Of a stretch of 64,000 nucleotides of DNA, positions 18,121-64,000 are shown in pieces. The stretch's first letter is position 1. Every line of letters begins with the position of its first letter. The translations under genes and the position numbers were made by a program. The notes under the pieces were generated by a model that worked only from the letters and a program-made list of their open reading frames with translations, was not told where the DNA came from and did not search any database. The stretch is from assembly GCA_947561585.1 (NCBI GenBank), contig CANNZV010000940.1, positions 278,919-342,918 on the forward strand. The letters run 5' to 3'. Origin of the DNA: Caprella mutica. Taxonomy: Eukaryota; Arthropoda; Malacostraca; Amphipoda; Caprellidae.

Positions 18121-18424
18121 AATGACGGTCTCACGACAGTCTTTGTGGAAGAGATTAATTCGCCTCCCTCCCTCTCTCAATAGCGGCTGCTGCTGGTGAG
18201 CCTCGACTTGTGTAAGCAGTGGACAACTGCTTACTGGATTCTTCGTATTTTTTAGATTCAGCTTTCACTTTAGCTATGAAGTTGCGAATAAGGCTTGAAT
18301 TGCCAGAACTAAATACTCCAGATGACGCAGAGATAGTGTTCAAGAGAACACTAAATAACTGTTCGTTTTGGTCTTCAAGCATTTTAAGAGTTGGAATCCT
18401 GCTACGAACGGATTTGCTTTCCAT
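18121..18424 (-). pseudogene. gag: Truncated BEL/Pao gag start in unit A'
   Basis: This is the inverted copy of the gag beginning at 1,518. It reads MESKSVRSRIPTLKM and continues to about residue 85, where a small insertion in an AG-rich run (near 18,167-18,176) shifts the frame. Sequence identity with the other copy ends at 18,121, so the rest of gag is absent. Two residues differ from the first copy in the first 30. Confidence 0.8.
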
Positions 18425-18694
18425 TATAAGTAGATAATGTTAGCCTCTTGGTTAATTGAAGTTTTGACTAAGACGAACTTTATCCAAAATCCAACCTTCC
18501 ACCACAGTATTTCTCGGACTGTTACGGAAGGATAAAGATACTCTAGGGAGAATTTACAGCTTTATTCCGTAAATAATCAACGTCCCTGTAAAGAGGGAAA
18601 AACTAACATCAAAATCTATTTTAATAACAAATACACAAATACCAGAATAATGAAAACCCTAAAAGATCATAACAGTACATTTTAATGGTTTCTA

Positions 18695-18985
18695 AATTAA
18701 CAAAGATTTAGTTTTTAATTCGCAAAGATTTAGTTTTTAATTTGCAAGCAAAGATTTAGTTTTTAATTTGCAAGCAAAGATTTAGCTTTTAATTCGCAAA
18801 GATTTAGTTTTTAATTCGCAAAGATTTAGTTTTTAATTCGCAAAGATTTAGTTTTTAATTCGCAAAGATTTAGTTTTTAATTCGCAAAGATTTATTTTTT
18901 TAATTCGCAAAGATTTAGTTTTTGATTCGCAAAGATTTAGTTTTTAATTCACAGGAAGATTTAGTTTTTAAAGTCAAAGATTTAG
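18695..18985. repeat. 22-bp minisatellite (inverted counterpart)
   Basis: Units of the type tttagtttttaattcgcaaa, with two longer variants (aatttgcaagcaaagattta) not seen in the copy at 988-1,262. Confidence 0.88.
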
Positions 18986-19964
18986 TGTAGATATCACGAA
19001 GAATAAACATTTAAATTCATATAGGAAATTGGTTGATCACTAATTTAACACTTGTAAACAAAGTTAAAATTATTGACAAGGAAATATTAGACTAGTTAAA
19101 ATAAATTAATTTGAAGACTATATGCACTGTTCTCAAATTTTTAAATATTCACAGCCTATCTAGATTACACAGGAAGTTTTGAATTTAGAATTTAAACTTA
19201 AGAAAGTTTGGTCGGCTAAGCCTAGTAGCACTAATAACTTTACACTAACTATTATTACTGGATTCAATTAGAATTTAAAAATTAGAAAGAGCACTTAATA
19301 AGATTAGCATTTAATAAAGAATGAATAAATTGGATATGCTAATTTCAACTTCTTAATGAACGACCTAAACTACCTAGAGTAAAATAAATATAATTTCTAA
19401 TAAACTTACGAGAAAGTGATTCCATGATGAACAGTAGGATGAAAAAATTATAATATAAATGTTCCTCAGAAGTAGTTTTGGGTAACTTAATATAATGTGT
19501 ATACGGTATCACCAACTGCGGGAAGGACAAGAAACTAGAAAATTATTTAATAATGAATAAGAAATAAATATAACATATTGGCCTTCACAAATGGAATGAG
19601 TCATCCATAAATGGAGAAAATAATTAAGGAAAACCTATGGAATAAGACTTCTAAAGGAAGGGGGAATAATGAAGGGATATCTTTGGAATAATTCATCCAA
19701 AGGAAGAAGGAATATTGAAGGAGTGCCAATGGAATAAGACATCCAAAATAAGAGGGATCACTGGCCATGTATCGCCGCTATTCACTTGACTCCAAAACTC
19801 AATTGTCACATAACTACACACCAAGAAGTTTAACTTGAACAAATAACTTTGTATAAAAGATCTCCTAACATTAAAACTTTAATTACAGGACACATTACTT
19901 AAATCTAGGAATTTCCACAATAATTTTTCCCTTTGTACTGATATGAAATGAAAGAAACTAAACC

Positions 19965-21559
19965 AACGTCAATCATTTTATTAAAATATCAAATAGCACA
20001 TAATTTAGAAAGGGCTTAATGTAATTAAACGTAAATTAATTCCTGGACAACTTGTTTACATGTTATGGAGGCTCAATATATCTATATTTTATAAGCTCTC
20101 ATTATTTTTCAATAGATATTTTTTATTTATTCTATAACGCTATGGTTGTACTTTTCAATTGCAAAGTTTTCAATTTTTAGTTAAAAATGGCTCGCAGGTT
20201 TCATTTACCATCTCCTCCTTCCTCATCTTCCTCTTCCATCTATTAATGCAGTCAACACTCAACAGTGCATTTGTCTCTTTTTGCAAAATTATTGACCACT
20301 ACAATCGATTGGTGGTAGCGAAGTTTACTTTCCTGTGTGACAACTAGTACAAAGTCTTTTGTAATTGGTTCTTTACTTTAAGCTGGAGCAAATTCATACA
20401 ATCGAGCAATTAATTTCGTCATTAATCTTAAATTTCTTCATATTCTCGACTATGAAGTGAATCTAGTGGTGTCAGTGCAGCTATAGTTTTAGTGCACGCG
20501 TTTCATGCTATATACTATATAGTACTCACAATTAATTGAAGAGAACATGTCTCTAGAATTGTAACTTCTTAGTAAACCATATTGCCAGAAACTGTGATAA
20601 TGGTACCTACAAAGAAATAAAATAATTAGTTATAAATTATAATACATCAATAATCTGTATTCAATTAGTTAATCCATAAATTAAATAAATACCTAAGTGA
20701 AAATATTCTTTCAAATTTTAAAAGATGAAAAAGTAGATAGTAAAGGGAATACAGATTTAGAAAAGAAAAATGTTTTTGAGAAACCATATGGGTCAAAAAA
20801 ATGAAAAAAAAATCAAATAAAGTAAAACAAGAAGTGGCTCATGAATGAAGAAAAGCTACTATGAACATTATTAACATTAAAATCATTATTAGCACTTTTA
20901 AAATTTTACTATTGAACTCAGTTTAAGGACAGGTCACTGAAGAAATAGTTTTATGAAATTTTATATCTCACTTACAGAGGCTAGAGAATGTGTATTGTTT
21001 AACCTAAATATGTAGCTAAATATTAATAAACAATTTCATAATATAAATTTACATAGTGAACCCATTTACAATTGAAGTATAAACTGATTATACTTATGAA
21101 TAGAAATTGGCGTACAAACTAAAATAGTACGGTAGGTGTGGTAAGTAGGGTCACGCAGGTAAATTGCGGTACTTTAAATTTTAATTGCAGCCCTCTCAAA
21201 AGAGTCTAAAACATTCTGAACCGATATTCCATTAAAATGTTGGATAGCTATCAAAAGAAGCTCAGTGCATGCTATAATTTATTAATTTCAGTTTTTAGCG
21301 TGTGTTTTGAAGCTATGATGTGTCTGTTGTTTGAGAGCTCAGTTAGTTAGTGTGCCGTAATTTACTTGCTTGACCCTACTCTTATTCCGTTATGACCAGA
21401 TTTCAATACTTAACTTTAAACCAAAATTTAAAATAGTTGAGTGATAATTGCTAATGAAACAATGGTGTACATTCGTTAAACATTTGCAATCATGATACTA
21501 ACCTCATTTTCTTGAATTGACACTAAATTAACTACTCTCTCTTATAGTCCGTCTACTAA
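19965..21559. other. AT-rich arm segment without a supported gene
   Basis: A degraded inverted copy of the dispersed sequence (with cttcctcttccatctatt and ctttcctgtgtgac) lies at about 20,120-20,345. The rest shows no frame, and the 62-codon frame at 20,159 is not supported. Confidence 0.6.
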
Positions 21560-22233
21560 AGGCCTTGTTACACGGTGCAAGTTACTGTTGTGACAGTGGG
21601 CAGTAGCTGTCCCACTGTGCTCGCACGCGAGTAGCTCGACTCGCCTCACCCGGTCACACAAGTGCGAACTGCTGGCTTGAAAATAGACAGTTACTGAACC
21701 TACACTCGCATTGTGTATTATAATATTTATTCAATAAATAAATAACTTCTTATATTTAATATTTTTTTTAAATTTTATTAACAATTTATTAATTTCACTA
21801 ATAAATAATATTATATTAGCCCAATTTAAATAAAAATTAATAATTAATATTTTATTAATTTAATTAATACCTAATTACTATTTTTATGATTAATAATTAC
21901 TATTTTTATTAATTTAATTAACATTTTATTAGTTAATTTAACGTTTATTTAATTTGATTTAATATTAAAAACCTAGGTATATCTGCATGACGTACGAGTT
22001 ACAGTTATGTTGTAACACCATGCAAGTTGACATCCGAGTTTCGCAGGCGAGTGGCTGACTCGCTCATGAGTGGCGAGTAAAAACAAAAAGAATTTGTAGT
22101 AACTTGCATGCGAGTTACTAACCTCCTGCACATGACAATTTCTCGGCTGATGCGGTCACACTGTGCGAGTAGCTGCACTAAAGTAACTAGCTAGGCCAAC
22201 TCTCACGTTTACTCGCACCGTGTAACAGGGCCT
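21560..22233. mobile_element. PIF/Harbinger-like MITE
   Basis: The ends aggccttgttacacggtgca and gcaccgtgtaacagggcct are inverted repeats flanked by TAA on both sides (21,557-21,559 and 22,234-22,236). GGCC...GTTACACGGT ends with a 3-bp TWA duplication are typical of PIF/Harbinger MITEs. Subterminal zones repeat the words gcgagtagct and gagttact; the centre is very AT-rich. The mirror copy is at 60,931-61,604. Confidence 0.88.
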
Positions 22234-22329
22234 TAAGTCTGAACTGCACTGCTGCAAGGAGAAAACTAAATGGGATAAAAATTATTTTGGCTACCTGATT
22301 CGCATCTTTAAGTATGTAGTTTCGGATTT

Positions 22330-22620
22330 CATTCAAACGAAATAATTCACTTGGTGGTTTAGTATCTACTTTAGAACAAAAGGTCATATCACTGAAATTT
22401 GGACATACAAGAGACTGGAAGAAGCAGCCAGAAAGGAAAGTGACTTTTAGATGCTCATGGATGTAGAAAATCTCCATGAAGGAGTTTTGTATGAATGGAA
22501 GATGAAATGGAAGCACATACCTTACACGGAAATCTAACACCTCATTGTCGAAGAGCTTATATACTCTTGCGCTATCCTCTAAAACTACAAGTAGGGTTAA
22601 AAATTATTTAGATGGTAAAA
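22330..22620 (+). repeat. Dispersed sequence copy
   Basis: Contains aaaaggtcatatcactgaaa, ggaagaagcagccagaaagg, gctcatggatgtagaaaa and aaaactacaagtagggtt in the same order as the copy at 3,826. The mirror is at about 60,545-60,835. Confidence 0.7.
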
Positions 22621-22699
22621 ATTAGAAGAGAACATATGAAATCCAAATTACAACAGTTCATCTCACAAACCCTCGTTTCTTAGTAATCCAATAAGACAA

Positions 22700-23320
22700 C
22701 CAAATTCTAAGGAAATAAAAAAAAATCATCGTTCGATTCCATTGACATTCCTTTGATGTTTGAAATACATACTTTAAATTTCCCATCTTCCAGGAACATT
22801 CCTTCATTTTACCCAATGGGATACATTCCTTATCAAAAATATTGAAATAGTTCCAGGGATATTCAAAAGTATTTCTTAAGAAGAAAATTTTTTCATTCGA
22901 TTCTTGTGACATTCCCTCATTGTTTCAAGAATAATAATATAGAGTCCAATTGTTCCAGGGATATTCTTTTGTTTTATTTTTGGGGAATACTATTATACGT
23001 AACTAGATTGATAATTTTTGGGATATTTATGTGATATTCAGAATGGAATACTATCCAAAATATATATTCCAAGAATATTTCAATTTGGTTCGTATGGAAT
23101 ACTATAGAATTATGATATTCCCTGAATATCCTAGGATGATATCTGACCGAATACTGTAACTCTCCAATATTCCTGGAATATTCCCTCGTATAAGAATTTG
23201 AATACTATCCAATATTATTGTCACAGGAATATCCCTTCATAATCAAACTGTGAATGGAGATTAGGAGGGAATATTGTAGATATTAAGGGAATATCCCAGG
23301 AACATAACCTTGTTGCCCAG
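22700..23320. repeat. Degenerate ggaatattcc-rich region
   Basis: The palindromic words ggaatattcc, gggatattc and ggaatactat recur about every 20-40 bases in both orientations over 600 bp. It ends near ggttatgttcctgggatatt (reverse strand) beside gcaacctgggcaacaagg. The 84-codon frame here is not supported as a gene. The mirror is at about 59,855-60,470. Confidence 0.65.
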
Positions 23321-25190
23321 GTTGCATCACAATTATTGCAGATTCTTAGGTATGGGTCGTAATAAAAACGGGGCCTGCCTGTAATTGTAATACATCTTTT
23401 TTGTCTTTTTGACTCATTTTAAATATCATTATGATCTAAAATACAGTGTATATATGTATCTTTTTTCTTTGTTGCAGATTCACTTTTGTGCCTGCGAATC
23501 AGATAATTGCAACTAAGCGTCAGGCCTCTCAGTGAACATGCTGGTGACTTCATCCATGATGGTGTTTGCCCTCTTTGCCGCCAGGGGGTGGATGTGATAG
23601 AAGTAACGTGTTATTAGATAATTGATTATATAATTATATTCAGCATAAAGTGCATTTTTAATGTTATTTATTACACAGGAAGTATGAATGACGTGTTATT
23701 CTTGTGTTTTAAATTTTAATTGCTTGTTGCGCTTGATGAGGTTAATAATTTGAAGCTTAATATTTTTATTTCAACATAGAAGGAGTCAACTTTCTTCAAA
23801 GTACCTACATCCGAGTCAAAATATTCCTTCTTCTTAAATTTTTGTATCACTAATACTCAAATATTATCAGATTGAACATTACTAATAATATTGTTAGTTG
23901 GAAATTACGTAAATTTCTAATGATACGTTGAACAACACTTTAGTTATATTCATCCTTAATGGATCTTCTTTCGATTATAATTTTCAGGCTGGGAGCAGTT
24001 ATTGAAAGTTTCCGAAAAAATTCGAAAATCAAAAATATATATTAAAAAAATTCAATAATTAATTTAAACATTATTATACAATCTTACATATGTATAGTTA
24101 TGAACTTATGATAGATTATAGTTATTATGCTATACAGCTAGTATGAAAATAAAAATAAAATAATTAAATAAAAACATTATCTTTACTATAATAGCTATTT
24201 TGACTAGAAACGGAGAGATGAAACTAGTAATTATGGTATGGACGACTATAAAAACTATGATAAATCATCTTTTACATTCGAATGGTCTGTTTACAAGCTA
24301 CGATAAATTGTAGCGATTTATCGTGATGAAGAATTTGTTAAAATTTATCATTACGTGTAGAAAGGAATTGTGTGGATGGTATCATGAAGCAGGCTCAATT
24401 TTTTTTTAAATCGTGACAATAAGAATCGATACATTTAGCTACAATTTGTAATTCCATCTTTATTAACAAATACATATCTTATATTTTTGATATAATTAAA
24501 CATACGTGATACATTAAATTAACTATGAAATAAATAAATTTTGAAATAATTTTATTTGAAAATATATTTCAAATGATTATTTCACGAAATTTTGAACTGT
24601 AGAATGAATTGTTCCGAATTTTCATAGACAAGAAATGTTTTTTTCGAGAGTTACTTCAGTTACCCATGGTGTATCACTGTATAACAGTTATTTTAGTATT
24701 CTCTTTGATTTTATTATCATTTATTGCTGACGAAGCACAATAATCATTAAGATTGAGAAATGAACACGCATGAATCAGTTTTTTGTTCACGATGTCGAAA
24801 AAACTTCGTAATTACTTATTTTTTCGATTTAATTAAAAAGAGACCGTAGATTTATTAAAAGCATTCGGTTGATTCGAAACAATAGTTACTTTTGCAGATT
24901 TCCTTTTTATTACGTTGCAGCTCACAAAGAATTCAAAATACTTGAGTTCGATAGCATTACAGCTAATTCAAAAATAAATTAAATATCATTAGTTGGTAAA
25001 AACTTTTGCGGATCCAAAAGAAGAGCATGGTATAGTGAAGAATAATCTGTGACACCATTGTGCAATGTACGATGCTGTTTCAGTTTAGTTGCAATCAACG
25101 CAACACCATGCAGCTTCATACCAATTGAACAGTTGTAGTTACGTTTATATTGAAAACATCATAGTTATGGAACAATTAATAAGTAGGGGT
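23321..25190. other. AT-rich arm segment without a supported gene
   Basis: A short GC-richer stretch near 23,475-23,610 (tgccgccagggggtggatg) follows a possible splice acceptor (ttctttgttgcag), but no frame extends. Nothing else is recognisable. Mirror about 57,975-59,855. Confidence 0.5.
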
Positions 25191-25194
25191 TTGG

Positions 25195-26335
25195 CCCTTC
25201 TTTATTTATTACGAAGCCATTTGTAATAAGGCCATATAGCTGAAGTTGAAATGAAAATGAATTAAAAAAACTAGAAAAATTGAAGCTGTCAGGAAGAAAG
25301 TGACTCTAAAAACAAAATGGCTCTATGTCAAATCGCAGAAAACATTCGCTGAAAACACTTTCGTTGAAAACACATTTGCCGAAAATACATTACCCGCACG
25401 ACACATTCACCGAACCAAACTTTCACCGAAAAAATATGATTATTTAGAAGGTAAAGAAATTTATCTCATATGTCCAGATAAAATTACATATAGATGAACC
25501 AACATATAAGTCAATAAATTGATTTTCAGTATTCTACATAATTATTGGTTACACTTTATGGAATTTACGTTATTTTAAATAACTCATATGATATATGTTA
25601 ATCCTATTTTCTGTTTACAATTATCAGTTACAAAAGAAAATAAATTTTTAACAGATTTATTTCTAGGTTTTAAGAATATTATATTACTATTACTTTTGTA
25701 AAATATTGACGATATGGAGAAGTATATTTGAGTATAAAACGGAAGTCGAAATCAATTTTGTTCAACAACTTCTCTTAAAAAATGAAAAGTTTATGTTAGA
25801 ATAAATGTATTAAATAACTGTAAATCCTCAACTTTCGAGATTGAATATCTCGAAAACCTAGAAATAAATCTGTTATATTAGCTTCCCTTTCGTACTCAAA
25901 TACATTTCTCCATATTGTCAAAGTTTTATAAAAGGAATAGTTATATGTAAGTTCATCTATATGTAATTTCATCTGGACATATGAGATAAATTTGTTTACC
26001 TTTTTAAATAATCATATTGTTCGGCGAAAGTGTCGTTAGGCAAATGTGTTTTCGGCGAATTTGTTTTCGTCGAATGGACCGACCGGTCACCCCTACAAAA
26101 TCACCTACTTACAGTCTGCGACAAAGCTAGTGGATGCTTAATTAAGGAGCAAATGTACCAGAACCTTCACTCTTGTATGGAAGAGGAACATGAAAAGGTG
26201 AACGTACTAAATGAAACATATGAACCTAACAAACATGAAATCCAAGGCCTTGTAGTTGCAGAACATAACAATAGGCCTATATATCCTCTAAAACTGCATA
26301 TAGTCTTAAAATAATGATATGGGCAATAAAGCATG
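25195..26335 (+). repeat. Dispersed sequence copy split by a foldback element
   Basis: The first part (25,195-25,320: aataaggccatatagctgaa, gtcaggaagaaagtgactct) and second part (26,090-26,335: cacctacttacagtctgcg, tgtatggaagaggaacatga) are the two consecutive halves of the dispersed sequence. The second half holds a 94-codon frame with SCMEEEHEKV and ETYEPNKHEIQGLVV. The mirror at about 56,830-57,975 is split at the same point. Confidence 0.75.
25331..26083. mobile_element. Foldback element with ttcggcgaa arrays
   Basis: The left end has ttcgctgaaaacactttcg, then aatatgattatttag and tctcatatgtccagataaaa. The right end mirrors it with gacatatgagataaatt, aaataatcatatt and ttcggcgaaagtgtcg. 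A second inner pair (aacagatttatttctagg against cctagaaataaatctgtt) makes almost the whole 750 bp foldback. No coding capacity. Confidence 0.8.
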
Positions 26336-26807
26336 GTAAAACGGGGAATATTTTCGTAACTTGCTATCTGCTACTTCGTCATATCGGTTTTGGTCAATTA
26401 CGCTACATTGATAAAATTTACAATTTATACAATTATAATTACAATTTAAAATAGTGAACTATTTTTTTAGAATATTTTCAATATATTCTATAACTTCAAT
26501 GTTAAAATGGACGAACGCCGCAGTTGTTGGGAGAAGTGTGAAAGCTAAAAAAATTGTCTGGTAATTCATTGTGCAACCCTCAACATAGGTCATTTTTTAA
26601 GATAATATTTTTCCATTAAAAAAGAGATTACTCATCTTCAAAATTCTTTGCTCTTCTTTTGAATCCGTATCAATTTACACCACATCATGTAATTTTAAGT
26701 TCTTTGAATGAAGCTTGATAAATATATTTTACGTTTTATGAGCACTGAAAAGAAAAAGGATATCTGTAATTGTTACAGTTGATTCAAACCTACTGAGATA
26801 TATTAAT

Positions 26808-28930
26808 TATTGCTCGAAAGAACAATTGCTTTATTGAACAATTGGTCGAATGAACAATTGCTCTAATGCACAATTATTGCTCGAATTATAAAAGTACACA
26901 CAGTTTTCAAATTTATAAAAGTCTGTTATTCATGAAATGGACTTTTTAGTGATTGATAAAACTGAGTCTATTTGTTCATAGCTATTTACTATTAATCATT
27001 GTATACCTGATTTTAAAATTTACTCTTCCCACTTTTTTTTCCTTTTTTTTCTAGAGGCTATTTCAATCATCTCGTTTGTAAAAGGTGAATGGTTATCATG
27101 TGGTGAAGTGGTACTATCCATATTTTTATCATAAAACTCGAATGATTATGTACGTAGATTAAATTTCGACTAGCCATACATGTATGTGGCAATTAAATAG
27201 GTGAAATAACTCAAAGTAATGGTAAACTAAGTAAAGTTTCAGTTTATTTACGTATTATACTATTTAACTAATGGTTGCATTGATAGTGTCTTATGGTTAT
27301 GACTAGGGATGTGACATTGTGCATATTGCATATATGCAGTCCTCTGTATATATTTCAAGAGCATATAATATGAACGTGTGCAAATATGCTAACCGAGAAA
27401 TATGCACTTCTTGGTCAATTTTTAACATGTAAATGTCTTATCTATGCCGTTTTCTTCTGGACTCCGGCATAGCAAACGATTTTAACTGTGGACCCAAGTA
27501 TATTTTATCAAACTAATTATTCATATTTAAAATGTTTTTAGGTGGAATATTTAAACTACAAATGAATTAATAAATAATATGACACTTGGTGTTTAGTAAA
27601 TATTAGTAGTAATTGATAAATAAATGAATAGATACACATATATCAACACTTTATAAAACGTATATATTCATTAAGTAATTGAACACAAAATGGTTTAATT
27701 TTACCATTTAATGACGTAGTGTCGCTGTTTAGAGTTGGGGATCATTTAAAGGGAACCGCTGGTCTAACTAGATGGTTTATAATTTTCAAGTTATCAGTTA
27801 AGTAATGAATTTTAAAACTATTTAATTTAGTTTTAATGTGATATATGAATGTAGGATAGTTTAGAACTTTAGAAGACTAAATTGGCTTAAAGAAACATTC
27901 GCTCCTCTCGTTTCTTGTGATGTAGAACGGGTTCTTTCCCAGATAATAGAAAGAGATTCACTGTTGGAAACCTGAAATACCATTTAATGATAATGTCCAA
28001 TTCCAGTTTGAAATTGAATGTGTATATTTAAAATTGACATACTATTAAAAAGTCTAACTTTGAAACAGCTTTGTTATATTTTCTTTTCTAACGTTAAACA
28101 TTCCACAGTAAAAATACAAACTTGAGATTACACCTTCGTTTTATTGTAAGTTCCATTCAAACCACCAAAGTACAATTACAATCAAAACACAACTATATAC
28201 ACTATACATATTAACTTTATTTTAAATTCTGTAATTAACATTGAGCATGTAATATGCACACTATATTGAATAACTTCTGGCCTATAAAATGCATATTTCC
28301 AATATGCATTTTGGTTCAGCATATATGCACATTGACTTTTTGCATATATATGCATATTTCCATTATGCATTTTGGTTCTGCATATATGCACATTGACTTT
28401 TTGCATATTATATGCAGAAATAGGCATATAATATGCTGCATATCGTGTCAAAAATTATGCATATTTTATGATGCATATTGACACATCTCTAGTTATGACT
28501 TATGATTGTGGGTGTAGTGTATTGCCATATTTTGGTAAGTTTTGGTGATCTTTTAGGATGTAGAGACTATACCACCTTACGGTTGTGCGGAGTATAGATT
28601 TCACGACATGTAGTGAGAATTAAAAGGTGAAGCTATTTTCGTTTCTGATTGTTGTTCCCTGTCCCTTATTAAGAATTGCCAATTAACATCAGCGATATGG
28701 CCTTTGGTTAAAGTTAAATAGTAATGATTAATGTTAGCAAGACCTCTGTTAATCGTACCACTTGTTTATTTTTATTTTCCCTCTCTATACCTAATCTCCC
28801 TATCTTTTTGACTCTTCCTTTTCTACCACACTCATTTAATTATTTGACCAATTAATTATTATAACAATTATTAATTTTTTTTATTCGAATTATTCGAATA
28901 TTGTTCTTTTCTTGCCTTTGTTTTGTAGCA
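26808..28930. mobile_element. Repeat element with gagcaattgttc arrays, copy 2
   Basis: Opens with attgctcgaaagaacaattg and closes near gaattattcgaatattgttc. The body is collinear with 17,097-18,085 except for a hAT insertion (27,304-28,491). The mirror is at about 54,190-56,365. Confidence 0.75.
27304..28491. mobile_element. Non-autonomous hAT-like MITE with perfect 8-bp duplication
   Basis: The ends tagggatgtgacatt and tgacacatctcta are flanked by gttatgac at 27,296-27,303 and again at 28,492-28,499. The related site in the copy at 17,097-18,085 lacks the insertion. Subterminal zones are rich in gcatat words, as in the element at 2,112. No transposase frame. Confidence 0.9.
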
Positions 28931-30307
28931 ATTTACCGGATACCAGCTACAGCCTACATTGTATCATTCACATGATATATCAAAAATACTTTGAGAAATC
29001 ATTTATATTAATTACACTTTTGATTGGAGTTTTACGAGACTCTGCATACTGTTGATTATTTGTCAAGTGTGGGATGATAAATTTTAACTTCAGAGCTAAC
29101 GAATTTTGTTCTGGAAAATTAATTTATCTTATTTATTTATTTATGATCAAAATATTCCCTTACTTGGGACGTGATACATGGGATAATTTCACGTTTAATT
29201 ACAAATATATACATGAAAGTAGATATAGGAAACATTGAGGCCCGATAAGCTTAATCCTAGTTAAAATTGAATAATTTTTTGTGCATTGTGAATTGAAGTC
29301 TACAAACAAAACAAAAGAACGAAATTTAACTTTATTTTATGCTTTCTCAATAAGAATGTATTAGTGTATTTCTCCAAATGAATTATCTCAATTTTAAATA
29401 GTTACATGATTTAGTCTGTCTTGAAAGTAATATGAAAAAAAATATATATTTGAGAGCCGTCAGCCGTCAAAGAAGTTATCCAGTTTTTATTAAGTGCTGT
29501 TTGACCCTCCTACTGTGAAAAAAAACTTTAACATTTAAACTTTGTGAGCAAATTTTAGAGGTGAAAATATCACAGTAGTCTTAAGTTATCACTAAAACAA
29601 ATATATGTATTGGACATTAAGTTTCTTGTTTTATTTTTGTATATATGAGACATAAAACTGTAGATCTTAACTGGTTATTTAATATGAAAGAATGGAAAAG
29701 TTGGATGGGGATATCTTAGTGAGTGGTACACTATTGGCGAAATTCATCACACCGTTGTCGATAGCATTAAAATTAAAAAATTAATGTTGGAGTGAACAGT
29801 TTGAAATATACAAATATAGATTTTGCTCTTTGAATTATAACAATAATAATGTTTGCAGGGATTTAGCTTTTCCTAGATACTAATAAGATATTAAGGTTCA
29901 TGATTATTAGAAAAATGAAAGAAAGCTTAATTGGGAGCACATTATTTATTTAAATAAATATGTTGACAGAACATGGAAATTGATTAATATAAAACTAAAA
30001 AACGGTAATATAGTATAATTCTTCTCTATTTAATTACAACTGGGTAATAATTATACTAACCTATTTCACTATATAAGAATAAAGAGCCCCGTGGAAAACT
30101 GATATAGAAATCAACTGAAAATAAAAAATAAGTCAATCTGGTCATTATTGGTGGAACATTTGAGAATTTAGTGATTATCAAAATCTAATATCAATATTCA
30201 CTATATGTTCCAACAGCTGAATAGATATTTACAAGTTTCGAATCTAGCAGGTGAGTCAGCGAGAAAAGAAATCCGTACTTGCCGCAAAAGCCCGTAAAGA
30301 GTCCTAA
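28931..30307. other. AT-rich segment downstream of the left-arm gene
   Basis: No supported gene. It corresponds to the 3' flank of the minus-strand gene; mirror about 52,793-54,189. Confidence 0.5.
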
Positions 30308-33064: not shown

Positions 33065-33166
33065 TTTGAAAGGAATAACTTCGGTCTTATAGACTTAAAT
33101 AAATTATCTAGAGCTGACTATGTCACAGACGGCAGGTAACTGTTTTGAAATTAGAAAGTGGATTCA

Positions 33167-33173
33167 TTTTATA
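33167..33173 (-). promoter_or_regulatory. TATA box of the left-arm gene
   Basis: Minus-strand tataaaa lies 103 bases upstream of the first ATG (33,064), within a stretch that is less AT-rich than average. It is identical in sequence and spacing in the other arm. Confidence 0.5.
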
Positions 33174-33697: not shown

Positions 33698-33913
33698 TTG
33701 GAGTTCCTGAGAAGCGGCCATTGGGTTTCCATGGCACAGTCTGTTAGTAAGTTTCGGAGTTATTCTTTGGAATTTGTATTGCAAGTTGATTTTTGTTTAT
33801 TTTTAGGTCGTGGTGTTAAATTAGTATATAATGAAAAACATTCGACAAAGAATGAGGTGATATCAAAGAGGATATTTTACGGGTCAATTACGTACTATCA
33901 TAGAAAAAAGTAG
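33698..33913 (+). other. Open 71-codon stretch identical in both arms, unsupported as a gene
   Basis: The frame opens at a TTG, not ATG, and shows no family. A possible donor (tgttagtaagt) lies inside. It is listed only because both arms encode the same residues (mirror 49,253-49,468). Confidence 0.2.
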
Positions 33914-36535: not shown

Positions 36536-36540
36536 CCTGA

Positions 36541-37555: not shown

Positions 37556-37557
37556 AC

Positions 37558-49994: not shown

Positions 49995-50001
49995 TATAAA
50001 A
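49995..50001 (+). promoter_or_regulatory. TATA box of the right-arm gene
   Basis: tataaaa in the context cgcctataaaatgaatcc, 103 bases before the ATG at 50,104. A start of transcription would be expected around 50,025-50,030 (inference). Confidence 0.5.
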
Positions 50002-50103
50002 TGAATCCACTTTCTAATTTCAAAACAGTTACCTGCCGTCTGTGACATAGTCAGCTCTAGATAATTTATTTAAGTCTATAAGACCGAAGTTATTCCTTTC
50101 AAA

Positions 50104-52792: not shown

Positions 52793-54189
52793 TTAGGACT
52801 CTATACGGGCCTTTGCGGCAAGTACGGATTACTTTTCTCGCTGACTCACCTGTTAGATTCGAAACTTGTAAATATCTATTCAGCTGTGGAACATATAGTG
52901 AATATTGATATTAGATTTTGATAATCACTAAATTCTCAAATGTTCCATCAATAATGACCAGATTGACTTATTTTTTATTTTCAGTTGATTTCTATATCAG
53001 TTTTCCACGGGGCTCTTTATTCTTATATAGTGAAATAGGTTAATATAATTATTACCCAGTTGTGATTAAATAGAGAAGAATTATACTATATTACCGTTTT
53101 TTAGTTTTATATTAATCAATTTCCATGTTCTGTCAACATATTTATTTAAATAAATAATGTGCTCCCAATTAAGCTTTCTTTCATTTTTCTAATAATCATG
53201 AACCTTAATATCTTATTAGTATCTAGGAAAAGCTAAATCCCTGCAAACATTATTATTGTTATAATTCAAAGAGCAAAATCTATACTTGTATATTTCAAAC
53301 TGTTCACTCCAACATTATTTTTTTAATTTTAATGCTATCGACAACGGTGTGATGAATTTCGCCAATAGTGTACCACTCACTAAGATTTCCCCATCCAACT
53401 TTTCCATTCTTTCATATTAAATAACCAGTTAAGATCTAGAGTTTTATGTCTCATATATACAAAAATAAAACAAGAAACTTAATGTCCAATACATATATTT
53501 GTTTTAGTGATAACTTAAGACTACTGTGATATTTTCACCACTAAAATTTGCTCACAAAGTGGAAATGTTAAAGTTCTTTTTTAAAGTAGGAGGGTCAAAC
53601 AGCACTTAATAAAAACTGGATAACTTCTTTGACGGCTGACGGCTCTCAAATATATATATTTTTTCATATTACTTTCAAGACAGACTAAATCATGAAACTA
53701 TTTAAAATTGAGATAATTCATTTTGAGAAATACACTAATACATTCTTATTGAGAAAGCATAAAATAAAGTTAAATTTCGTTCTTTTGTTTTGTTTGTAGA
53801 CTTCAATTCACAATGTACAAAAAAATATTCAATTTTAACTAGGATTAAGCTTATCGGGCCTCAATGTTTCCTATATCTACTTTCATGTATATATTTGTAA
53901 TTAAACGTGAAATTATCCCATGTATCACGTCCAAAGTAAGGGAACATTTTGATCATAAATAAATAAATAAGATAAATTAATTTTCCAGAATAAAATTCGT
54001 TAGCTCTGAAGTTAAAATTTATCATCCCACATGACAAATAATCAACAGTATGCAGAGTCTCGTAAAACTCCAATCAAAAAAGTAATTAATATAAATGATT
54101 TCTCAAAGTATTTTTGATATATCATGTGAATGATACAATGTAGGCTGTAGCTGGTATCCGGTAAATTGCTACAAAACAAAGGCAAGAAA
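52793..54189. other. AT-rich 3' flank of the right-arm gene
   Basis: Mirror of 28,931-30,307; no supported gene. The 70-codon frame at 53,861-54,073 has no recognisable features. Confidence 0.5.
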
Positions 54190-56365
54190 AGAACAATATT
54201 CGAATAATTCGAATAAAAAAAATTAATAATTGTTATAATAATTAATTGGTCAAATAATTAAATGAGTGTGGTAGAAAAGGAAGAGTCAAAAAGATAGGGA
54301 GATTAGGTATAGAGTAGGGAAAATAAAAATGAACAAGTGGCACGATTAACAGAGGTCTTGCTAACATTAATCATTACTATTTAACTTTAACCAAAGGCCA
54401 TATCGCTGATGTTAATTGGCAATTAAGTATAAGGGACAGGGATCAACAATCAGAAACAAAAATAGCTTCACCTTTTAATCCTCACTATATGTCGTGAAAT
54501 CTATACTCCGCACAACCGTAAGGTGGTATAGTCTCTATATCCTAAAAGATCACCAAAACTTACCAAAATATGGCAATACACTACACCCACAATCATAAGT
54601 CATAACTAGAGATGTGACATTATGCATCATAAAATATGCATAATTTTTGACACGATATGCAGCATATTATATGCCTATTTCTGCATATAATATGCAAAAA
54701 GTCAATGTGCATATATTCAGAACCAAAATGCATAATGGAAATATGCATATATATGCAAAAAGTCAATGTGCATATATGCTGAACCAAAATGCATATTGGA
54801 AATATGCATTATAAAGGCCAGAAGTTATTCAATATAGTGTGCATATTACATGCTCAATGTAATTACAGAATTTAAAATAAAGTTAATATGTATAATGTAT
54901 ATAGTTATGTTTTGATTGTAATTGTACTTTGGTGGTTTGAATGGAACTTACAATAAAACGAAGGTGTAATCTCAAGTTTGTATTTTTACTGTGGAATGTT
55001 TAACGTTAGAAAAGAAAATATAACAAAGCTGTTTCAAAGTTAGACTTTTTTAATAGTATGTCAATTTTAAATATACACATTCAATTTCAAACTGGAATTG
55101 GACATTATCATTAAATGGTATTTCAGGTTTCCAACAGTGAATCTCTTTCTATTATCTATTTATCTGCTAATGTATTTTGTACTGAGAAAATACCCGTTCT
55201 ACATCACAAGAAACGAGAGGAGCGAATGTTTCTTTCAGCCAATTTAGTCTTCTAAAGTTCTAAACTATCCTACATTCATATATCACATTAAAACTAAATT
55301 AAATAGTTTTAAAATTCATTACTTAACTCATAACTTGAAAATTATAAACCATCTAGTTAGACCAGCGGTTCCCTTTAAATGATCCCCAACTATAAACAGC
55401 GACACTACGTCATTAAATGGTAAAATTAAACCATTTTGCGTTTAATTACTTAATGAATATATACGTTTTATAAAGTGTTGATATATGTGTATCTATTCAT
55501 TTATTTATCAATTACTACTAATATTTACTAAACACCAAGTGTCATATTATTTATTAATTCATTTGTAGTTTCAATATTCCACCTAAAAACTTGTTAAATT
55601 TGAATGATTAGGTTGATAAAATATACTTGGTCCACAGTTAAAATAGTTTTCTATGCCGGAGTCCAGAAGAAAACGGCATAGATTAGACATTTACATGTTA
55701 AAAATTGACCAAGAAGTGCTTATTCCTCGGTTAGCATATATGCACAAGTGCATATTATATGGCATATATGCACACGTGCATATTATATAGCATATATGCT
55801 CTTGAAATATATGCAGAGGACTGCATATATGCAATATGCACAATGTCACATCCCTAGTCATAACCATAAGACACTATCAATACAACCATTAGTTAAATAG
55901 TATAATACGTAAATAAACTGAAACTTTACTTAGTTTACCATTGCTTTGAGTTATTTCACCTATTTAATTGCCACATACATGTATGGCTAGTCGAAATTTA
56001 ATCTATGTACGTACATAATCATTCGAGTTTTATGATAAAAATATGGATAGTACCACTTCACCACATGATAACCATTCACCTTTTACAAACGAGATGATTG
56101 AAATAGCCTCTAGAAAAAAAAAGAAAAAAAAGTGGAAAGAGTAAATTTTAAAATCAGTTATACAATGATTAATAGTAAATAGCTATGAACAAATAGACTC
56201 AGTTTTATCAATCACTAAAAAGTCCATTTCATGAATAACAGACTTTTATAAATTTGAAAACTGTGTGTAATTTTATAATTCGAGCAATAATTGTGCATTA
56301 GAGCAATTGTTCATTCGACCAATTGTTCAATAAAGCAATTGTTCTTTCGAGCAATAATTAATATA
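54190..56365. mobile_element. Repeat element with gagcaattgttc arrays, right-arm copy
   Basis: Mirror of 26,808-28,930, carrying the same hAT insertion. Confidence 0.75.
54607..55856. mobile_element. hAT-like MITE, right-arm copy
   Basis: Ends tagagatgtgacatt and aatgtcacatcccta, flanked by gtcataac at 54,599-54,606 and 55,857-55,864. It is 62 bases longer than the left copy because a subterminal gcatatatgcac unit has been duplicated near 55,735-55,800. Confidence 0.9.
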
Positions 56366-56829
56366 TCTCAGTAGGTTTGAATCAACTGTAACAATTACAG
56401 ATTTCCTTTTTCTTTTCAGTGCTCATAAAACGTAAAATATCTTTATCAAGCTTCATTCAAAGAACTTAAGATTACATGATGTGGTATAAATTGATACGGA
56501 TTCAAAAGAAGAGCAAAGAATTTTGAAGATGAGTAATCTCTTTTTTAATGGAAAAATATTATCTTAAAAAATGACCTATGTTGAGGGTTGCACAATGAAT
56601 TACCAGACACAATTTTTTTAGCTTTCACACTTCTCCCAACAACTGCGGCGTTTGTCGATTTTAACATTGAAGTTATAGAATATATTGAAAATATTCTAAA
56701 AAAATAGTTCACTATTTTGAATTGTAATTATAATTGTATAAATTGTAAATTTTATCAATGTAGCGTAATTGACCAAAACCGATATGACGAAGTAGCAGAT
56801 AGCAAGTTACGAAAATATTCCCCGTTTTA

Positions 56830-57975
56830 CCATGCTTTATTGCCCATATCATTATTTTAAGACTACATGCAGTTTTAGAGGATATATCGGCCTATTGTTA
56901 TGTTCTGCAACTACAAGGTCTTGGATTTCATGTTTGTTAGGTTCATATGTTTCATTAGGTACGTTCACCTTTTCATGTTCCTCTTCCATACAAGAGTGAA
57001 GGTTCTGGTACATTTGCTCCTTGATTAAGCATCCATTAGCTTTGTCGCAGACTGTAAGTAGGTGACTTTTTAGGGGTGACCGGTCGGTCCATTCGACGAA
57101 AACAAATTCGCCGAAAACACATTTGCCTAACGACACTTTCGCCGAACAATATGATTATTTAAAAAGGTAAACAAATTTATCTCATATGTCCAGATGAAAT
57201 TACATATAGATGAACTTACATATAACTATTCCTTTTATAAAACTTTGACAATATGGAGAAATGTATTTGAGTACGAAAGGGAAGCTAATATAACAGATTT
57301 ATTTCTAGGTTTTCGAGATATTCAATCTCGAAAGTTGAGGATTTACAGATATTTAATACATTTATTCTAACATAAACTTTTCATTTTTTAGAAGAAGTTG
57401 TTGAACAAAATTGATTTCGACTTCCGTTTTATACTCAAATATACTTCTCCATATCGTCAATATTTTACAAAAGTAATAGTAATATAATATTCTTAAAACC
57501 TAGAAATAAATCTGTTAAAAATTTATTTTCTTTTGTAACTGATAATTGTAAACAGAATATAGGATTAACATATATCATATGAGTTATTTAAAATAACGTA
57601 AATTCCATAAAGTGTAACTAATAATTATGTAGAATACTGAAAATCAATTTATTGACTTATATGTTGGTTCATCTATATGTAATTTCATCTGGACATATGA
57701 GATAAATTTCTTTACCTTCTAAATAATCATATTTTTTCGGTGAAAGTTTCGTTCGGTGAATGTGTCGTGCGGGTAATGTGTTTTCGGCAAATGTGTTTTC
57801 AACGAAAGTGTTTTCGGCGAATGTTTTCGGCGATTTGACATAGAGCCATTTTGTTTTTAGAGTCATTTTCTTCCTGACAGCTTAAATTTTTCTATTTTTT
57901 TTTAATTCATTTTCATTTCAACTTCAGCTATATGGCCTTATTACATATGGCTTTGTAATAAATAAAGGGCCAAAC
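56830..57975 (-). repeat. Dispersed sequence copy split by foldback, right arm
   Basis: Mirror of 25,195-26,335; halves at about 56,830-57,080 and 57,845-57,975. Confidence 0.75.
57083..57840. mobile_element. Foldback element with ttcggcgaa arrays, right arm
   Basis: Mirror of 25,331-26,083 with the same two-level inverted structure. Confidence 0.8.
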
Positions 57976-59854
57976 CCCTACTTATTAATTGTTCCATAAC
58001 TATGATGTTTTCAATATAAACTTAACTACAACTGTTCAATTGGTATGAAGCTGCATGGTGTTGCGTTGATTGCAACTAAACTGAAACAGCATCGTACATT
58101 GCACAATGGTGTCACAGATTATTCTTCACCATACCATGCTCTTCTTTTGGATCCGCAATAGTTTTTACCAACTAATGATCATTTAATTTATTTTTGAATT
58201 AGCTGTAATGCTATCGAACTCAAGTATTTTGAATTCTTTGTGAGCTCCAACGCAAAAAAAGGAAATTTGCAAAAGTAACTATTGTTTCAAACCAACCGAA
58301 TGCTTTTAATAATTCTACGATCTCTTTTTAATTAAATCGACAAAATAAGTAATTTCGAAGTTTTTTCGACATCGTGAACAAAAAACTGATTCATGCGTGT
58401 TCATTTCTCAATCTTAATGATTATTGTGCTTCGTCAGCAATAAATGACAATAAAATCAAAGAGAATACTAAAATAACTGTTATACAGTGATACACTATGG
58501 ATAACTGAAGTAACTCTCGAAAAAAACATTTCTTGTCTATGAAAATTCGGAACAATTCATTCTACAGTTCAAAATTTCTTGAAATAATCATTTGAAATAT
58601 ATTTTCAAATAAAATTATTTCAAAATTTATTTATTTCATAGTTAATTTAATGTATCACGTATGTTTAATTATATCAAAAATATAAGATATGTATTTGTTA
58701 ATAAAGATGGAATTACAAATTGTAGCTAAATGTATCGATTCTTATTGTCACGATTTAAAAAAAAATTGAGTCTGCTTCATGATACCATCCACACAATTCC
58801 TTTCTACACGTAATGATAAATTTTAACAAATTCTTCATCACGATAAATCGCTACAATTTATCGTAGCTTGTAAACAGACCATTCGAATGTAAAAGATGAT
58901 TTATCATAGTTTTTATAGTCGTCCATACCATAATTACTAGTTTCATCTCTCCGTTTCTAGTCAAAATAGCTATCATAGTAAAGATAGTGTTTTTATTTAA
59001 TTATTTTATTTTTATTTTCATACTAACTGTATAGCATAATAACTATATTCTATCATAAGTTCATAACTATACATATGTAAGATTGTATAATAATGTTTAA
59101 ATTAATTCTTGGATTTTTTTAATATATATATTTTTAATTTTCGAATTTTTTCGGAAACTTTCAATAACTGCTCCCAGCCTAAAAATGATAATCGAAAGAA
59201 GATCCATTAAGGATGAATATAACTAAAGTGTTGTTCAACGTATCATTAGAAATTTACGTAATTTCCAACTAACAATATTATTAGTAATGTTCAATCTGAT
59301 AATATTTGAGTATTAGTGATACAAAAATTTAAGAAGAAGGAATATTTTGACTATGATGTAGGTACTTTGAAGAAAGTTGACTCCTTCTATGTTGAAATAA
59401 AAATATTAAGCTTCAAATTATTAACCTCATCAAGCGCAACAAGCAATTAAAATTTAAAACACAAGAATAACACATCATTCATACTTCCTGTGTAATAAAT
59501 AACATTAAAAATGCACTTTATGCTGAATATAATTATATAATCAATTATCTAATAACACGTTACTTCTATCACAACCACCCCCTGGCGGCAAAGAGGGCAA
59601 ACACCATCATGGATGAAGTTACCAGCATGTTCACTGAGAGGCCTGACGCTTAGTTGCAATTATATGATTCGCAGGCACAAAAGTGAATCTGCAACAAAGA
59701 AAAAAGATACATATATACACTGTATTTTAGATCATAATGATATTTAAAATGAGTCAAAAAGACAAAAAAGATGTATTACAATTACAGGCAGGCCCCGTTT
59801 TTATTACGACCCATACCTAAGAATCTGCAATAATTGTGATGCAACCTGGGCAAC
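57976..59854. other. AT-rich right-arm segment
   Basis: Mirror of 23,321-25,190; no supported gene. Confidence 0.5.
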
Positions 59855-60470
59855 AAGGTTATGTTCCTGGGATATTCCCTTAATATCTACAATATTCCCT
59901 CCTAATCTCCATTCACAGTTTGATTATGAGGGGATATTCCTGTAACAATAATATTGGATAGTATTCAAATTCTTATACGAGGGAATATTCCAGGATTATT
60001 GGAGAGTTACAGTATTCGGTCAGATATCATCCTAGGATATTCAGGGAATATCATAATTCTATAGTATTCCATACGAACCAAATTGAAATATTCTTGGAAT
60101 ATATATTTTGGATAGTATTCCATTCTGAATATCACATAAATATCCCAAAAATTATCAATCTAGTTACGTATAATAGTATTCCCCAAAAATAAAACAAAAG
60201 AATATCCCTGGAACAATTGGACTCTATATTATTATTCTTGAAACAATGAGGGAATGTCACAAGAATCGAATGAAAAAATTTTCTTCTTAAGAAATACTTT
60301 TGAATATCCCTGGAACTATTTCAATATTTTTGATAAGGAATGTATCCCATTGGGTAAAATGAAAGAATGTTCCTGGAAGATGGGAAATTTAAAGTATGTA
60401 TTTCAAACATCAAAGGAATGTCAATGGAATCGAACGATGATTTTTTTTATTTCCTTAGAATTTGGTTGTC
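59855..60470. repeat. Degenerate ggaatattcc-rich region, right arm
   Basis: Mirror of 22,700-23,320. Confidence 0.65.
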
Positions 60471-60544
60471 TTATTGGATTACTAAGAAACGAGGGTTTGA
60501 GAGATGAACTGTTGTAATTTGGATTTCATATATTCTCTTCTAAT

Positions 60545-60835
60545 TATTACCATCTAAATAATTTTTAACCCTACTTGTAGTTTTAGAGGATAGCGCAAGA
60601 GTATATAAGCTCTTCGACAATGAGGTGTTAGATTTCCGTGTTAGGTATGTGCTTCCATTTCATCTTCCATTCATACAAAACTCCTTCACGGAGATTTTCT
60701 ACATCCATGAGCATCTAAAAGTCACTTTCCTTTCTGGCTGCTTCTTCCAGTCTCTTGTATGTCCAAATTTCAGTGATATGTCTTTTGTTCTAAAGTAGAT
60801 ACTAAACCACCAAGTGAATTATTTCGTTTGAATGA
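60545..60835 (-). repeat. Dispersed sequence copy, right arm
   Basis: Mirror of 22,330-22,620. Confidence 0.7.
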
Positions 60836-60930
60836 AATCCGAAACTACATACTTAAAGATGCGAATCAGATAGCCAAAATAATTATTATCCAATTTAGTT
60901 TTCTCCTTGCAGCAGTGCAGTTCAGACTTA

Positions 60931-61604
60931 AGGCCCTGTTACACGGTGCGAGTAAACGTGAGAGTTGGCCTAGCTAGTTACTTTAGTGCAGCTACTCGCA
61001 CAGTGTGACCGCATCAGCCGAGTAATTGTCATGTGCAGGAGGTTAGTAACTCGCATGCAAGTTACTACAAATTCTTTTTGTTTTTACTCGCCACTCATGA
61101 GCGAGTCAGCCACTCGCCTGCGAAACTCGGATGTCAACTTGCATGGTGTTACAACATAACTGTAACTCGTACGTCATGCAGATATACCTTGGTTTTTAAT
61201 ATTAAATCAAATTAAATAAGCGTTAAATTAACTAATAAAATGTTAATTAAATTAATAAAAATAGTAATTATTAATCATAAAAATAGTAATTAGGTATTAA
61301 TTAAATTAATAAAATATTAATTATTAATTTTTATTTAAATTGGGCTAATAAAATATTATTTATTAGTGAAATTAATAAATTGTTAATAAAATTTATAAAA
61401 AAATGTTAAATATAAGAAGTTATTCATTTATTGAATAAATATTATAATACACAATGCGAGTGTAGGTTCAGTAACTGCCTATTTTGAAGCCAGCAATTCG
61501 CACTTGTGTAACCGGGTGAGGCGAGTCGAGCTACTCGCGTGCAACACAGTGGGACAGCTACTGTCCACTGTCACAACAGTAACTTGCACCGTGTAACAAG
61601 GCCT
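60931..61604. mobile_element. PIF/Harbinger-like MITE, right arm
   Basis: Ends aggccctgttacacggtgcg and gcaccgtgtaacaaggcct, flanked by tta on both sides (60,928-60,930 and 61,605-61,607). Confidence 0.88.
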
Positions 61605-63191
61605 TTAGTAGACGGACTATGAGAGAGAGTAGTTAATTTAGTGTCAATTCAAGAAAATGAGGTTAGTATTATGATTGCAAATGTTTAACGAATGTACACC
61701 ATTGTTTCATTAGCAATTATCACTCAACTATTTTAAATTTTAATTTAAATGAAAGTATTGAAATCTGGTCATAACGGAATAAGAGTAGGGTCAAGCAAGT
61801 AAATTGCGGCACACTAACTAACTGAGCTCTCAAACAACAGACACATCATAGCTTCAAAACACACGTTAAAAACTGAAATTAATAAATTATAGCATGCACT
61901 GAGCTTCTATTGATAGCTATCCAACATTTTAATGGAATATCGGTTCAGAATGTTTTAGACTCTTTTAAGAGGGCTGCAATTAAAATTTAAAGTACCGCAA
62001 TTTACCTGCGTGACCCTACTTACCACACCTACCGTACTATTTTAGTTTGTACGCCTATTTCTATTCATAAGTATAATCAGTTTATACTATAATTGTAAAT
62101 GGGTTCACTATGTTAATTTATATTATGAAATTGTTTATTAATATTTAGCTACATACTTAGGTTAAACAATACACATTCTCTAGCCTCTGTAAGTGAGATA
62201 TAAAATTTCATAAAACTATTTCTTCAGTGACCTGTCCTTAAACTGAGTTCAATAGTAAAATTTTAAAAGTGCTAATATTGATTTTAATGTTAATAATGTT
62301 CATAGTAGCTTTTCTTCATTCATGAGCCACTTCTTGTTTTACTTTATTTGATTTTTTTTTCATTTTTTGACCCATATGGTTTCTCAAAAACATTTTTCTT
62401 TTCTAAATCTGTATTCCCTTTACTATCTACTTTTTCATCTTTTAAAATTTGAAAGAATATTTTCACTTAGGTATTTATTTAATTTATGGATTAACTAATT
62501 GAATACAGATTATTGATATATTATAACTAATTATTTTATTTCTTTGTAGGTAACACTATCACAGTTTCTGGAAATATGGTTTACTAAGAAGTTACAATTC
62601 TAGAGACATGTCCTCTTCAATTAATTGTGAGTACTATATAGTATATAGCATGAAACGCGTGCACTAAAACTATAGCTGCACTGACACCACTAGATTCACT
62701 TCATAGTCGAAAATATGAAGAAATTTAAGATAAATGACGAAATTAATTGCTCGATTGTATGAATTTGCTCCAGCTTTAAGTAAAGAACCAATTACAAAAG
62801 ACTTTGTACTAGTTGTCACACAGGAAAGTAAACTTCGCTACCACCAATCGATTGTAGTGGTCAATAATTTTGCAAAAAGAGACAAATGCACTGTTGAGTG
62901 TTGACTGCATTAATAGATGGAAGAGGAAGATGAGGAAGGAGGAGATGGTAAATGAAACCTGCGAGCCATTTTTAACTAAAAATTGAAAACTTTGCAATTG
63001 AAAAGTACAACCATAGCGTTATAGAATAAATAAAAAATATCTATTGAAAAATAATGAGAGCTTATAAAATATAGATATATTGAGCCTCCATAACATGTAA
63101 ACAAGTTGTCCAGGAATTAATTTACGTTTAATTACATTAAGCCCTTTCTAAATTATGTGCTATTTGATATTTTAATAAAATGATTGACGTT
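61605..63191. other. AT-rich right-arm segment with a degraded dispersed-sequence copy
   Basis: Mirror of 19,965-21,559. The dispersed copy lies at about 62,805-63,035 (gatggaagaggaagatgag, aatgaaacctgcgagcc). No supported gene. Confidence 0.6.
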
Positions 63192-64000
63192 GGTTTAGTT
63201 TCTTTCATTTCATATCAGTACAAAGGGGCAAATTATTGTGGAAATTCCTAGATTTAAGTAATGTGTCCTTTAATTAAAGTTTTAATGTTAGATCTTTTAT
63301 ACAAAGTTATTTGTTCAAGTTAAACTTCTTGGTGTGTAGTTATGTGACAATTGAGTTTTGGAGTCAAGTGAATAGCGGCGATACATGGCCAGTGATCCCA
63401 CTTATTTTGGATGTCTTATTCCATTGGCACTCCTTCAATATTCCCTCTTCCTTTGGATGACTTATTACAAAGCTATCCCTTCATTATTCCCCCTTCCTTT
63501 AGAAGTCTTATCCCATAGGTTTTCCTTAATTATTTCCTCCATTTATGGATGACTCATTCCATTTGTGAAGGCCAATAATTTATATTTATTTCTTATTCAT
63601 TATTAAATAATTTTTTAGTTTCTTGTCCTTCCCGCAGTAGGTGATACCGTATACACATTATATTAAGTTACCCAAAACTACTTCTGAGGAACATTTATAT
63701 AATAATTTTTTCATCCTACTGTTCATCATGGAATCACTTTCTCGTAAGTTTATTAGAAATTATATTTATTTTACTCTAGGTAGTTTAGGTCGTTCATTAA
63801 GAAGTTGAAATTAGCATATCCAATTTATTCATTCTTTATTAAATGCTAATCTTATTAAGTGCTCTTTCTAATTTTTAAATTCTAATTGAATCCAGTAATA
63901 ATAGTTAGTGTAAAATTATTAGTGGTCTACTAGGCTTAGACGACACAAACTTTCTTATGATTTAAATTCTACATTTAAAACTTCCTGTGTAATCTAGATA
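63192..64000 (+). repeat. Start of another unit A (direct copy of 1-810)
   Basis: Collinear with 1-810 in direct orientation with a few percent substitutions, and inverted relative to 19,964-19,155. By analogy it should continue beyond the window into the BEL/Pao gag. Confidence 0.92.

What the first reader, a model, noticed from the sequence alone, without database searches (positions are those of the whole stretch)
18121..64000. Giant palindrome: arms over 20 kb around a 4.3-kb spacer
The two arms are reverse complements in strict order over at least 20 kb and differ by about 2% where checked. Arms of this size and similarity with a gene inside are known from ampliconic sex-chromosome palindromes, where arm-to-arm gene conversion maintains similarity. 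Whether this region is sex-linked cannot be seen here.
Basis: partly seen in the sequence, partly recalled or inferred. Interest (0 to 1): 0.85.

Follow-up and report, generated by a model that had tools for sequence, protein, structure and literature searches.

The report
Large inverted segmental duplication, partly seen
A 21-kb stretch of what looks like an animal genome is present as two mirror-image copies around a dead retrotransposon, with the end of a third copy nearby; this is probably an ordinary inverted segmental duplication, and nothing in the window shows that it is sex-linked.

Summary
The palindrome is real in the sequence: left arm 19157-39366 is the reverse complement of right arm 43682-64000, around spacer 39367-43681. 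Ungapped identity is 98.5% (296 mismatches, 37 indel runs; 96.9% counting gaps). The right arm runs off the window, about 1.0 kb before its predicted end. The order copy(-) / 16.3-kb spacer A / copy(+) / 4.3-kb spacer B / copy(-) is that of an inverted triplication. The "gene inside" is a broken BEL/Pao retrotransposon pol. Each arm holds three open terminal exons of an unidentified gene and no other convincing gene. Support for conversion between arms is weak: the three copies are about equidistant at the outer end, identity is far below human Y palindromes (>99.9%), and arm GC is not raised. The inner 8.7 kb, half as diverged as the rest, does fit conversion. Sex linkage is untestable here. 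The own-genome search was unreachable in 14 of 14 tries, so a misjoin is not excluded. Best reading: an inverted segmental duplication, probably from replication-based inverted amplification.

The parts
1..1817 (-). outer end of a third copy of the unit, same orientation as the right arm; cut by the window start
   Evidence: 96.1% BLAST identity to the reverse complement of 18121-19964; 1-808 is 97.5% identical to 63192-64000, direct
1503..2114 (+). 203-codon ORF (stop to stop) crossing the outer unit boundary; open in the third copy, frameshifted and cut at 18121 in the left arm; gag-like only by impression
   Evidence: no Pfam family
1818..18120 (.). spacer A between third copy and left arm: Ty3-type pol remains and a 20-bp minisatellite
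5522..8605 (-). broken Ty3-type retroelement (DUF7041 protein, RT, RNase H, start of integrase) in spacer A
   Evidence: PF23055, PF00078, PF17917, PF17919, PF17921 in separate ORFs; ORF matches to relatives
9239..12323 (+). 20-bp minisatellite, 154 copies, 94% matches
18121..39366 (+). left copy (arm) of the 21.2-kb unit
30308..31522 (-). three terminal exons (31323-31522, 31081-31221, 30308-30763) of an unidentified gene, left arm; exon model is inferred
   Evidence: AG/GT splice dinucleotides and one open frame of 264 residues plus stop
39367..43681 (.). spacer B
39546..43057 (-). broken BEL/Pao pol (RT, RNase H, integrase); no LTR, gag or protease detected
   Evidence: PF05380, PF17921 above and PF00078 below cut-off; 43 relatives of the piece 40143-41966, best 59% identity; 39549-40142 matches C-terminal parts of the same relatives
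43682..64000 (-). right copy (arm); runs off the window, predicted outer end near 65,036 if colinear
51578..52792 (+). the same three terminal exons, right arm, open with the same splice dinucleotides

Best explanation
This is an inverted segmental duplication in an animal (possibly arthropod) nuclear genome. A 21.2-kb unit is present in two nearly full copies head to head, with the outer end of a third copy, in alternating orientation (-,+,-). The two junction types, outer end to outer end across spacer A and inner end to inner end across spacer B, are those of an inverted triplication. Inferred mechanism: a replication strand switch (ODIRA- or MMBIR-like) made inverted copies, and later rearrangement and retrotransposon insertion opened the symmetric junctions to 16.3-kb and 4.3-kb spacers. 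The copies then diverged by point mutation and indels, with at most limited gene conversion near the centre. Shown: copies, order, orientation, divergence, junctions and spacer content in the given sequence. Inferred: the origin, and that the DNA molecule truly has this order. No function is proposed; in each arm I could find only the tail of a gene.
For: Colinear inverted arms. A third alternating copy, with an ORF running through the outer boundary in that copy but cut in the left arm, so 18121 is most simply the new junction. Star-like divergence at the outer end. Differences are mostly substitutions, 296 against 37 indel runs, and 5 of the 26 indels of 1-2 bp lie in homopolymers, so read errors are an unlikely source. 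In yeast, inverted triplications with rearranged junctions had spacers of 1.1-34.9 kb (PMC10766186, passages).
Against: Only 1.8 kb of the third copy is visible; it could be a dispersed repeat rather than a third unit. No ODIRA scar can be demonstrated at the present junctions. No reads and no own-genome search were available, so the order is the assembler's. The inner-outer divergence step is not explained by a single duplication without conversion or a second event.
Confidence: 0.55

Rival explanations
1. Assembly misjoin: two haplotypes of one locus (or collapsed paralogues) joined in inverted order at the spacer.
For: Divergence of 1.5-2% is within the range of invertebrate heterozygosity (recalled). 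Artificial palindromes are a known problem after whole-genome amplification (PMC6218980, abstract and outline only). The window ends before the right arm's outer junction, the place that would tell.
Against: A third copy is present, about as far from each arm as the arms are from each other (29 variable sites), where two alleles and a paralogue should be unequal. A single-molecule fold-back would be expected to give near-identical arms.
Confidence: 0.25
2. Ampliconic palindrome, possibly sex-linked, with arms kept alike by arm-to-arm gene conversion.
For: Size and ungapped identity fit the palindrome definition. The inner part is half as diverged as the outer part: 79 of 8,575 columns against 217 of 11,520, change point 30700, 0 of 300 permutations as strong. 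The step does not come from the gene tail: beyond it, towards the centre, 75 of 7,752 columns differ. The anatomy resembles the willow W palindromes.
Against: 98.5% identity instead of >99.9%. No excess L-R sharing at the outer end: private differences R 11, L 10, third copy 8. Arm GC of 30.0% is not above spacer B (36.0%) or spacer A (36.8%; its part 12324-18120 is 30.4%), though retroelements confound this. The longest identical run, 725 columns, is not unusual for the inner rate (6.8% of 1,000 simulations reach it). Only a gene tail was found in the arms.
Confidence: 0.15
3. The third copy at 1-1817 is only a dispersed repeat, such as the LTR and leader of a retroelement, and the structure is a simple two-arm inverted duplication. 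(Overlaps in part with the best explanation, so the odds do not sum to one.)
For: Retroelement remains lie in both spacers; the ORF at 1503-2114 could be a gag start (impression only); the three copies are star-like.
Against: The shared stretch is at least 1.8 kb and includes two tandem repeats (46 bp and 22 bp). Apart from the arms, (blastn, E<=1e-6, matches of 60 bp or more shown) finds no further copy of it in the window, so no partner LTR.
Confidence: 0.3

Closest known systems
Palindromes W.P1 and W.P2 of the Salix purpurea W chromosome (PMC7023750, passages seen)
   Same: W.P1 has 20-kb arms and a spacer of a few kb (2.6 kb in the text, 3,586 bp in its Table 2), with further copies of the same arm sequence beside it
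   Different: willow arms are >99% identical on average, carry several gene families and are female-specific; here 98.5%, one gene tail found, linkage unknown
Human Y palindromes such as P6 (PMC3723533, passages seen)
   Same: large inverted arms around a non-duplicated spacer
   Different: P6 arms differ by about 0.02% and convert actively; here 1.5%, with no conversion signal at the outer end
Inverted triplications (TRP/INV, DUP-TRP/INV-DUP; ODIRA model, PMC10766186, passages seen)
   Same: alternating orientation and two junction types; in yeast, rearranged junctions with spacers of 1.1-34.9 kb
   Different: those are recent events with known copy number; here the copies are diverged and the third is seen only at its end

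Membership tests
Palindrome as defined for ape sex chromosomes (PMC11168930) | arms >=8 kb, >=98% identity, spacer <=500 kb | tested here: met
   20.2-kb arms, 98.5% over ungapped columns (96.9% counting gaps), 4.3-kb spacer
Palindrome as defined for ape sex chromosomes (PMC11168930) | less than 80% repetitive content | not tested
   no repeat library of the host was available
Sex-chromosome ampliconic palindrome | located on a sex chromosome | not testable with these tools
   no reads by sex; own-genome search unreachable in 14 of 14 tries
Sex-chromosome ampliconic palindrome | arm-to-arm gene conversion keeps arms alike | tested here: inconclusive
   inner arm half as diverged; outer end star-like with the third copy; arm GC not raised
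Sex-chromosome ampliconic palindrome | intact multicopy genes in the arms | tested here: inconclusive
   three terminal exons open in both arms; no upstream exon above the scan's score cut; none of 622 candidates scored E<=1
Inverted triplication | three copies in alternating orientation with outer-outer and inner-inner junctions | tested here: inconclusive
   pattern seen, but only 1.8 kb of the third copy lies in the window
BEL/Pao retrotransposon (spacer B) | Pao-type RT, RNase H and integrase | tested here: met
   PF05380 and PF17921 above cut-off; PF00078 at 26.2 bits, under its cut-off of 29.6
BEL/Pao retrotransposon (spacer B) | complete element with LTRs, gag and protease | tested here: not met
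   no direct repeats flank it; only pol ORFs matched relatives there; pol broken by stops and a frame change

The most novel reading that the evidence does not exclude
The window is one period (63,191 bp) of a longer array in which a 21-kb unit alternates in orientation between two fixed spacers: an ampliconic, chromosome-scale repeat of an animal, perhaps on a sex or B chromosome, whose copies exchange sequence only near the palindrome centres.
Probability: 0.12. Interest if true: 0.6.

Novelty: new member of a known kind. Interest (0 to 1): 0.33.

Why it matters
If the order is real, it is a diverged inverted amplicon with more than two copies, and it would offer a test of whether conversion is focused near palindrome centres. 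Otherwise it matters mainly as a caution: a palindrome by itself is no sign of sex linkage. I make no claim that such structures are unreported in this animal group; the organism is unknown.

Tried and rejected
Chance: set aside by size and identity, without a formal model. Single-read fold-back artefact: disfavoured by 1.5% substitution divergence between arms. Functional gene in the spacer: rejected, broken BEL pol. Mobile element with 20-kb terminal repeats: not supported; of the 108 left-arm ORFs of 45 codons or more (recount of the list), 18 were sent to Pfam and none reached a cut-off, while 90 were not sent. RNA genes: no tRNA, no Rfam match at gathering score.

Identifying the gene tail: none of 622 candidates scored E<=1, but that search takes only proteins of 0.55-1.75 times the query's length, so a longer full protein would be missed. 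PDB matches lay at E 0.33-1 and are taken as chance. Pfam gave nothing above cut-off. A second weak coding candidate, 22190-22603 minus, scored 14.5 against 19-26 for the accepted pieces and has no Pfam family; I left it open.

Identifying the organism: the BEL pol's first relative with an organism name is Palaemon (rank 24 of 43, 37% identity over 71%), followed by Musca and Trichinella. The Ty3 RT's top hit is Oedothorax (51% over 61%), but its listed 120 of 1,815 also name Trichuris, Schistosoma, Trichobilharzia, Apostichopus, Araneus, Hymenolepis and Lasius at similar identity. That says animal; arthropod is only a guess. Viral-contig scans gave no relative of the BEL piece (9 pattern matches, none confirmed) and no match to the minisatellite unit.

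Full report
Observation. Self-comparison of the window finds one colinear inverted repeat, in several blocks, between 19157-39366 and 43682-64000. A global alignment of the two arms has 20,434 columns, with 296 mismatches (98.5% of ungapped columns identical) and 37 indel runs; counting the 339 gap columns, identity is 96.9%. Tandem repeats differ in copy number between arms, for example the 15-bp repeat with 13.1 copies at 35139-35334 and 19.1 at 47744-48029. The right arm is cut by the window end about 1.0 kb before its predicted outer end.

A third copy. One search shows that 1-1817 is the reverse complement of 18121-19964 and that 1-808 is a direct copy of 63192-64000. The order is copy(-), spacer A 1818-18120, copy(+), spacer B 39367-43681, copy(-); the direct period is 63,191 bases. 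At the outer boundary a 203-codon ORF (1503-2114) runs straight through position 1817 in the third copy, but is frameshifted and cut at 18121 in the left arm. Most simply, the left arm's edge is the new junction.

Spacers. Spacer B carries, on the minus strand, reverse transcriptase, RNase H and integrase of a BEL/Pao retrotransposon, in three ORFs broken by a frame change and stops. The 607-aa piece 40143-41966 has 43 relatives at E<=0.001, best 59% identity. No LTRs, gag or protease were detected. Spacer A holds a broken Ty3-type element and a 154-copy, 20-bp minisatellite.

Arms. Splice dinucleotides and open frames give the last three exons of one gene (200, 141 and 456 bp; 264 residues plus stop), open in both arms. 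They differ at 11 of 797 bp between arms, more than the two introns between them (2 of 418), and the last exon's ORF has 2 synonymous and 6 non-synonymous codon differences: no sign of constraint, though the sample is small. A codon-usage scan of the left arm, whose small training set included these exons and the boundary ORF, found no minus-strand candidate above its cut between 31,600 and 39,366, where 5' exons should lie; it did list a weaker candidate at 22190-22579. No homologue was found. The tail may well be a pseudogene in both arms.

Is there gene conversion? For: divergence drops from 217 of 11,520 columns (1.88%) outside 30700 to 79 of 8,575 (0.92%) inside it, with 0 of 300 permutations as strong; divergence falls towards the centre across 40 bins (Spearman -0.49, p 0.001). 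The gene tail does not make the step: from 31523 to the centre 75 of 7,752 columns differ. Permutation ignores other sources of clustering (variance to mean 2.2 across bins). The longest identical run, 725 columns, exceeds a uniform model for the whole arm but not clearly one for the inner part (6.8% of 1,000 simulations). Against: at the outer end the three copies have 11 (R), 10 (L) and 8 (third) private differences in 805 ungapped columns, whereas preferential L-R exchange should leave the third copy most distant. Arms are 30.1% and 29.9% GC, spacers 36.8% (A) and 36.0% (B), and the part of A right of the minisatellite 30.4%. In apes and in human P6, arms are richer in GC than spacers; here they are not, but retroelements confound the test. 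Human P6 arms differ by about 0.02%.

Mechanism. Outer-outer and inner-inner junctions in alternating copies are the topology of an inverted triplication, which the ODIRA model explains by strand switching at a replication fork. In yeast some such junctions were rearranged later, with spacers of 1.1-34.9 kb (PMC10766186, passages). The two inner arm ends, with the spacer left out, would meet in an AT-rich symmetric sequence (by eye). I infer origin by such an event followed by loss of symmetry and retroelement insertion. The inference depends on the third copy being a full unit, of which only 1.8 kb is visible.

Artefact? The differences are mostly substitutions, and 5 of 26 indels of 1-2 bp lie in homopolymers, so the copies are more likely real variants than read errors. 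Whether they lie on one molecule in this order is not shown. The own-genome search failed in 14 of 14 tries, and no reads are available.

Origin of the window. GC is 32%; there are no tRNAs and no Rfam matches at gathering score; inferred introns and animal-type retroelements are present. Named relatives of the retroelements are arthropods, nematodes, flatworms and an echinoderm, with a spider (Oedothorax) first for Ty3 and a shrimp (Palaemon) first among named ones for BEL (animal groups recalled). An animal is likely; arthropod is a guess.

Comparison. By size and ungapped identity the structure qualifies as a palindrome in the sense of PMC11168930. Its anatomy is closest to the willow W palindromes (PMC7023750). 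Neither resemblance shows sex linkage. Of the six paper searches I saw the listings; of four papers I saw passages and of one the abstract and outline.

Verdict. The interpretation as a conversion-maintained sex-chromosome palindrome is possible but poorly supported. An inverted segmental duplication is enough to explain most of it; the inner-outer divergence step remains open.

Noticed in passing
window 9239-12323: A 20-bp minisatellite of 154 copies at 94% matches, G+C-richer than its surroundings (49% GC at 10001-12000), beside a Ty3-type element.
   Followed up: partly
window 39382-39424: A perfect 13-bp inverted repeat with 17 bases between its arms at the left edge of spacer B, just beyond the left arm's inner end.
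   Followed up: partly
window 17096-17866 and 26874-28860: Older colinear matches (83-88% identity) between spacer A and the left arm, probably dispersed repeats.
   Followed up: no
window 4473-5480: A 335-codon plus-strand ORF in spacer A, gag-like by impression only, ending just before the broken Ty3 element; no Pfam hit.
   Followed up: partly
window 22190-22603: A 138-codon minus-strand ORF in the left arm with a moderate coding score (14.5) and no Pfam family.
   Followed up: partly
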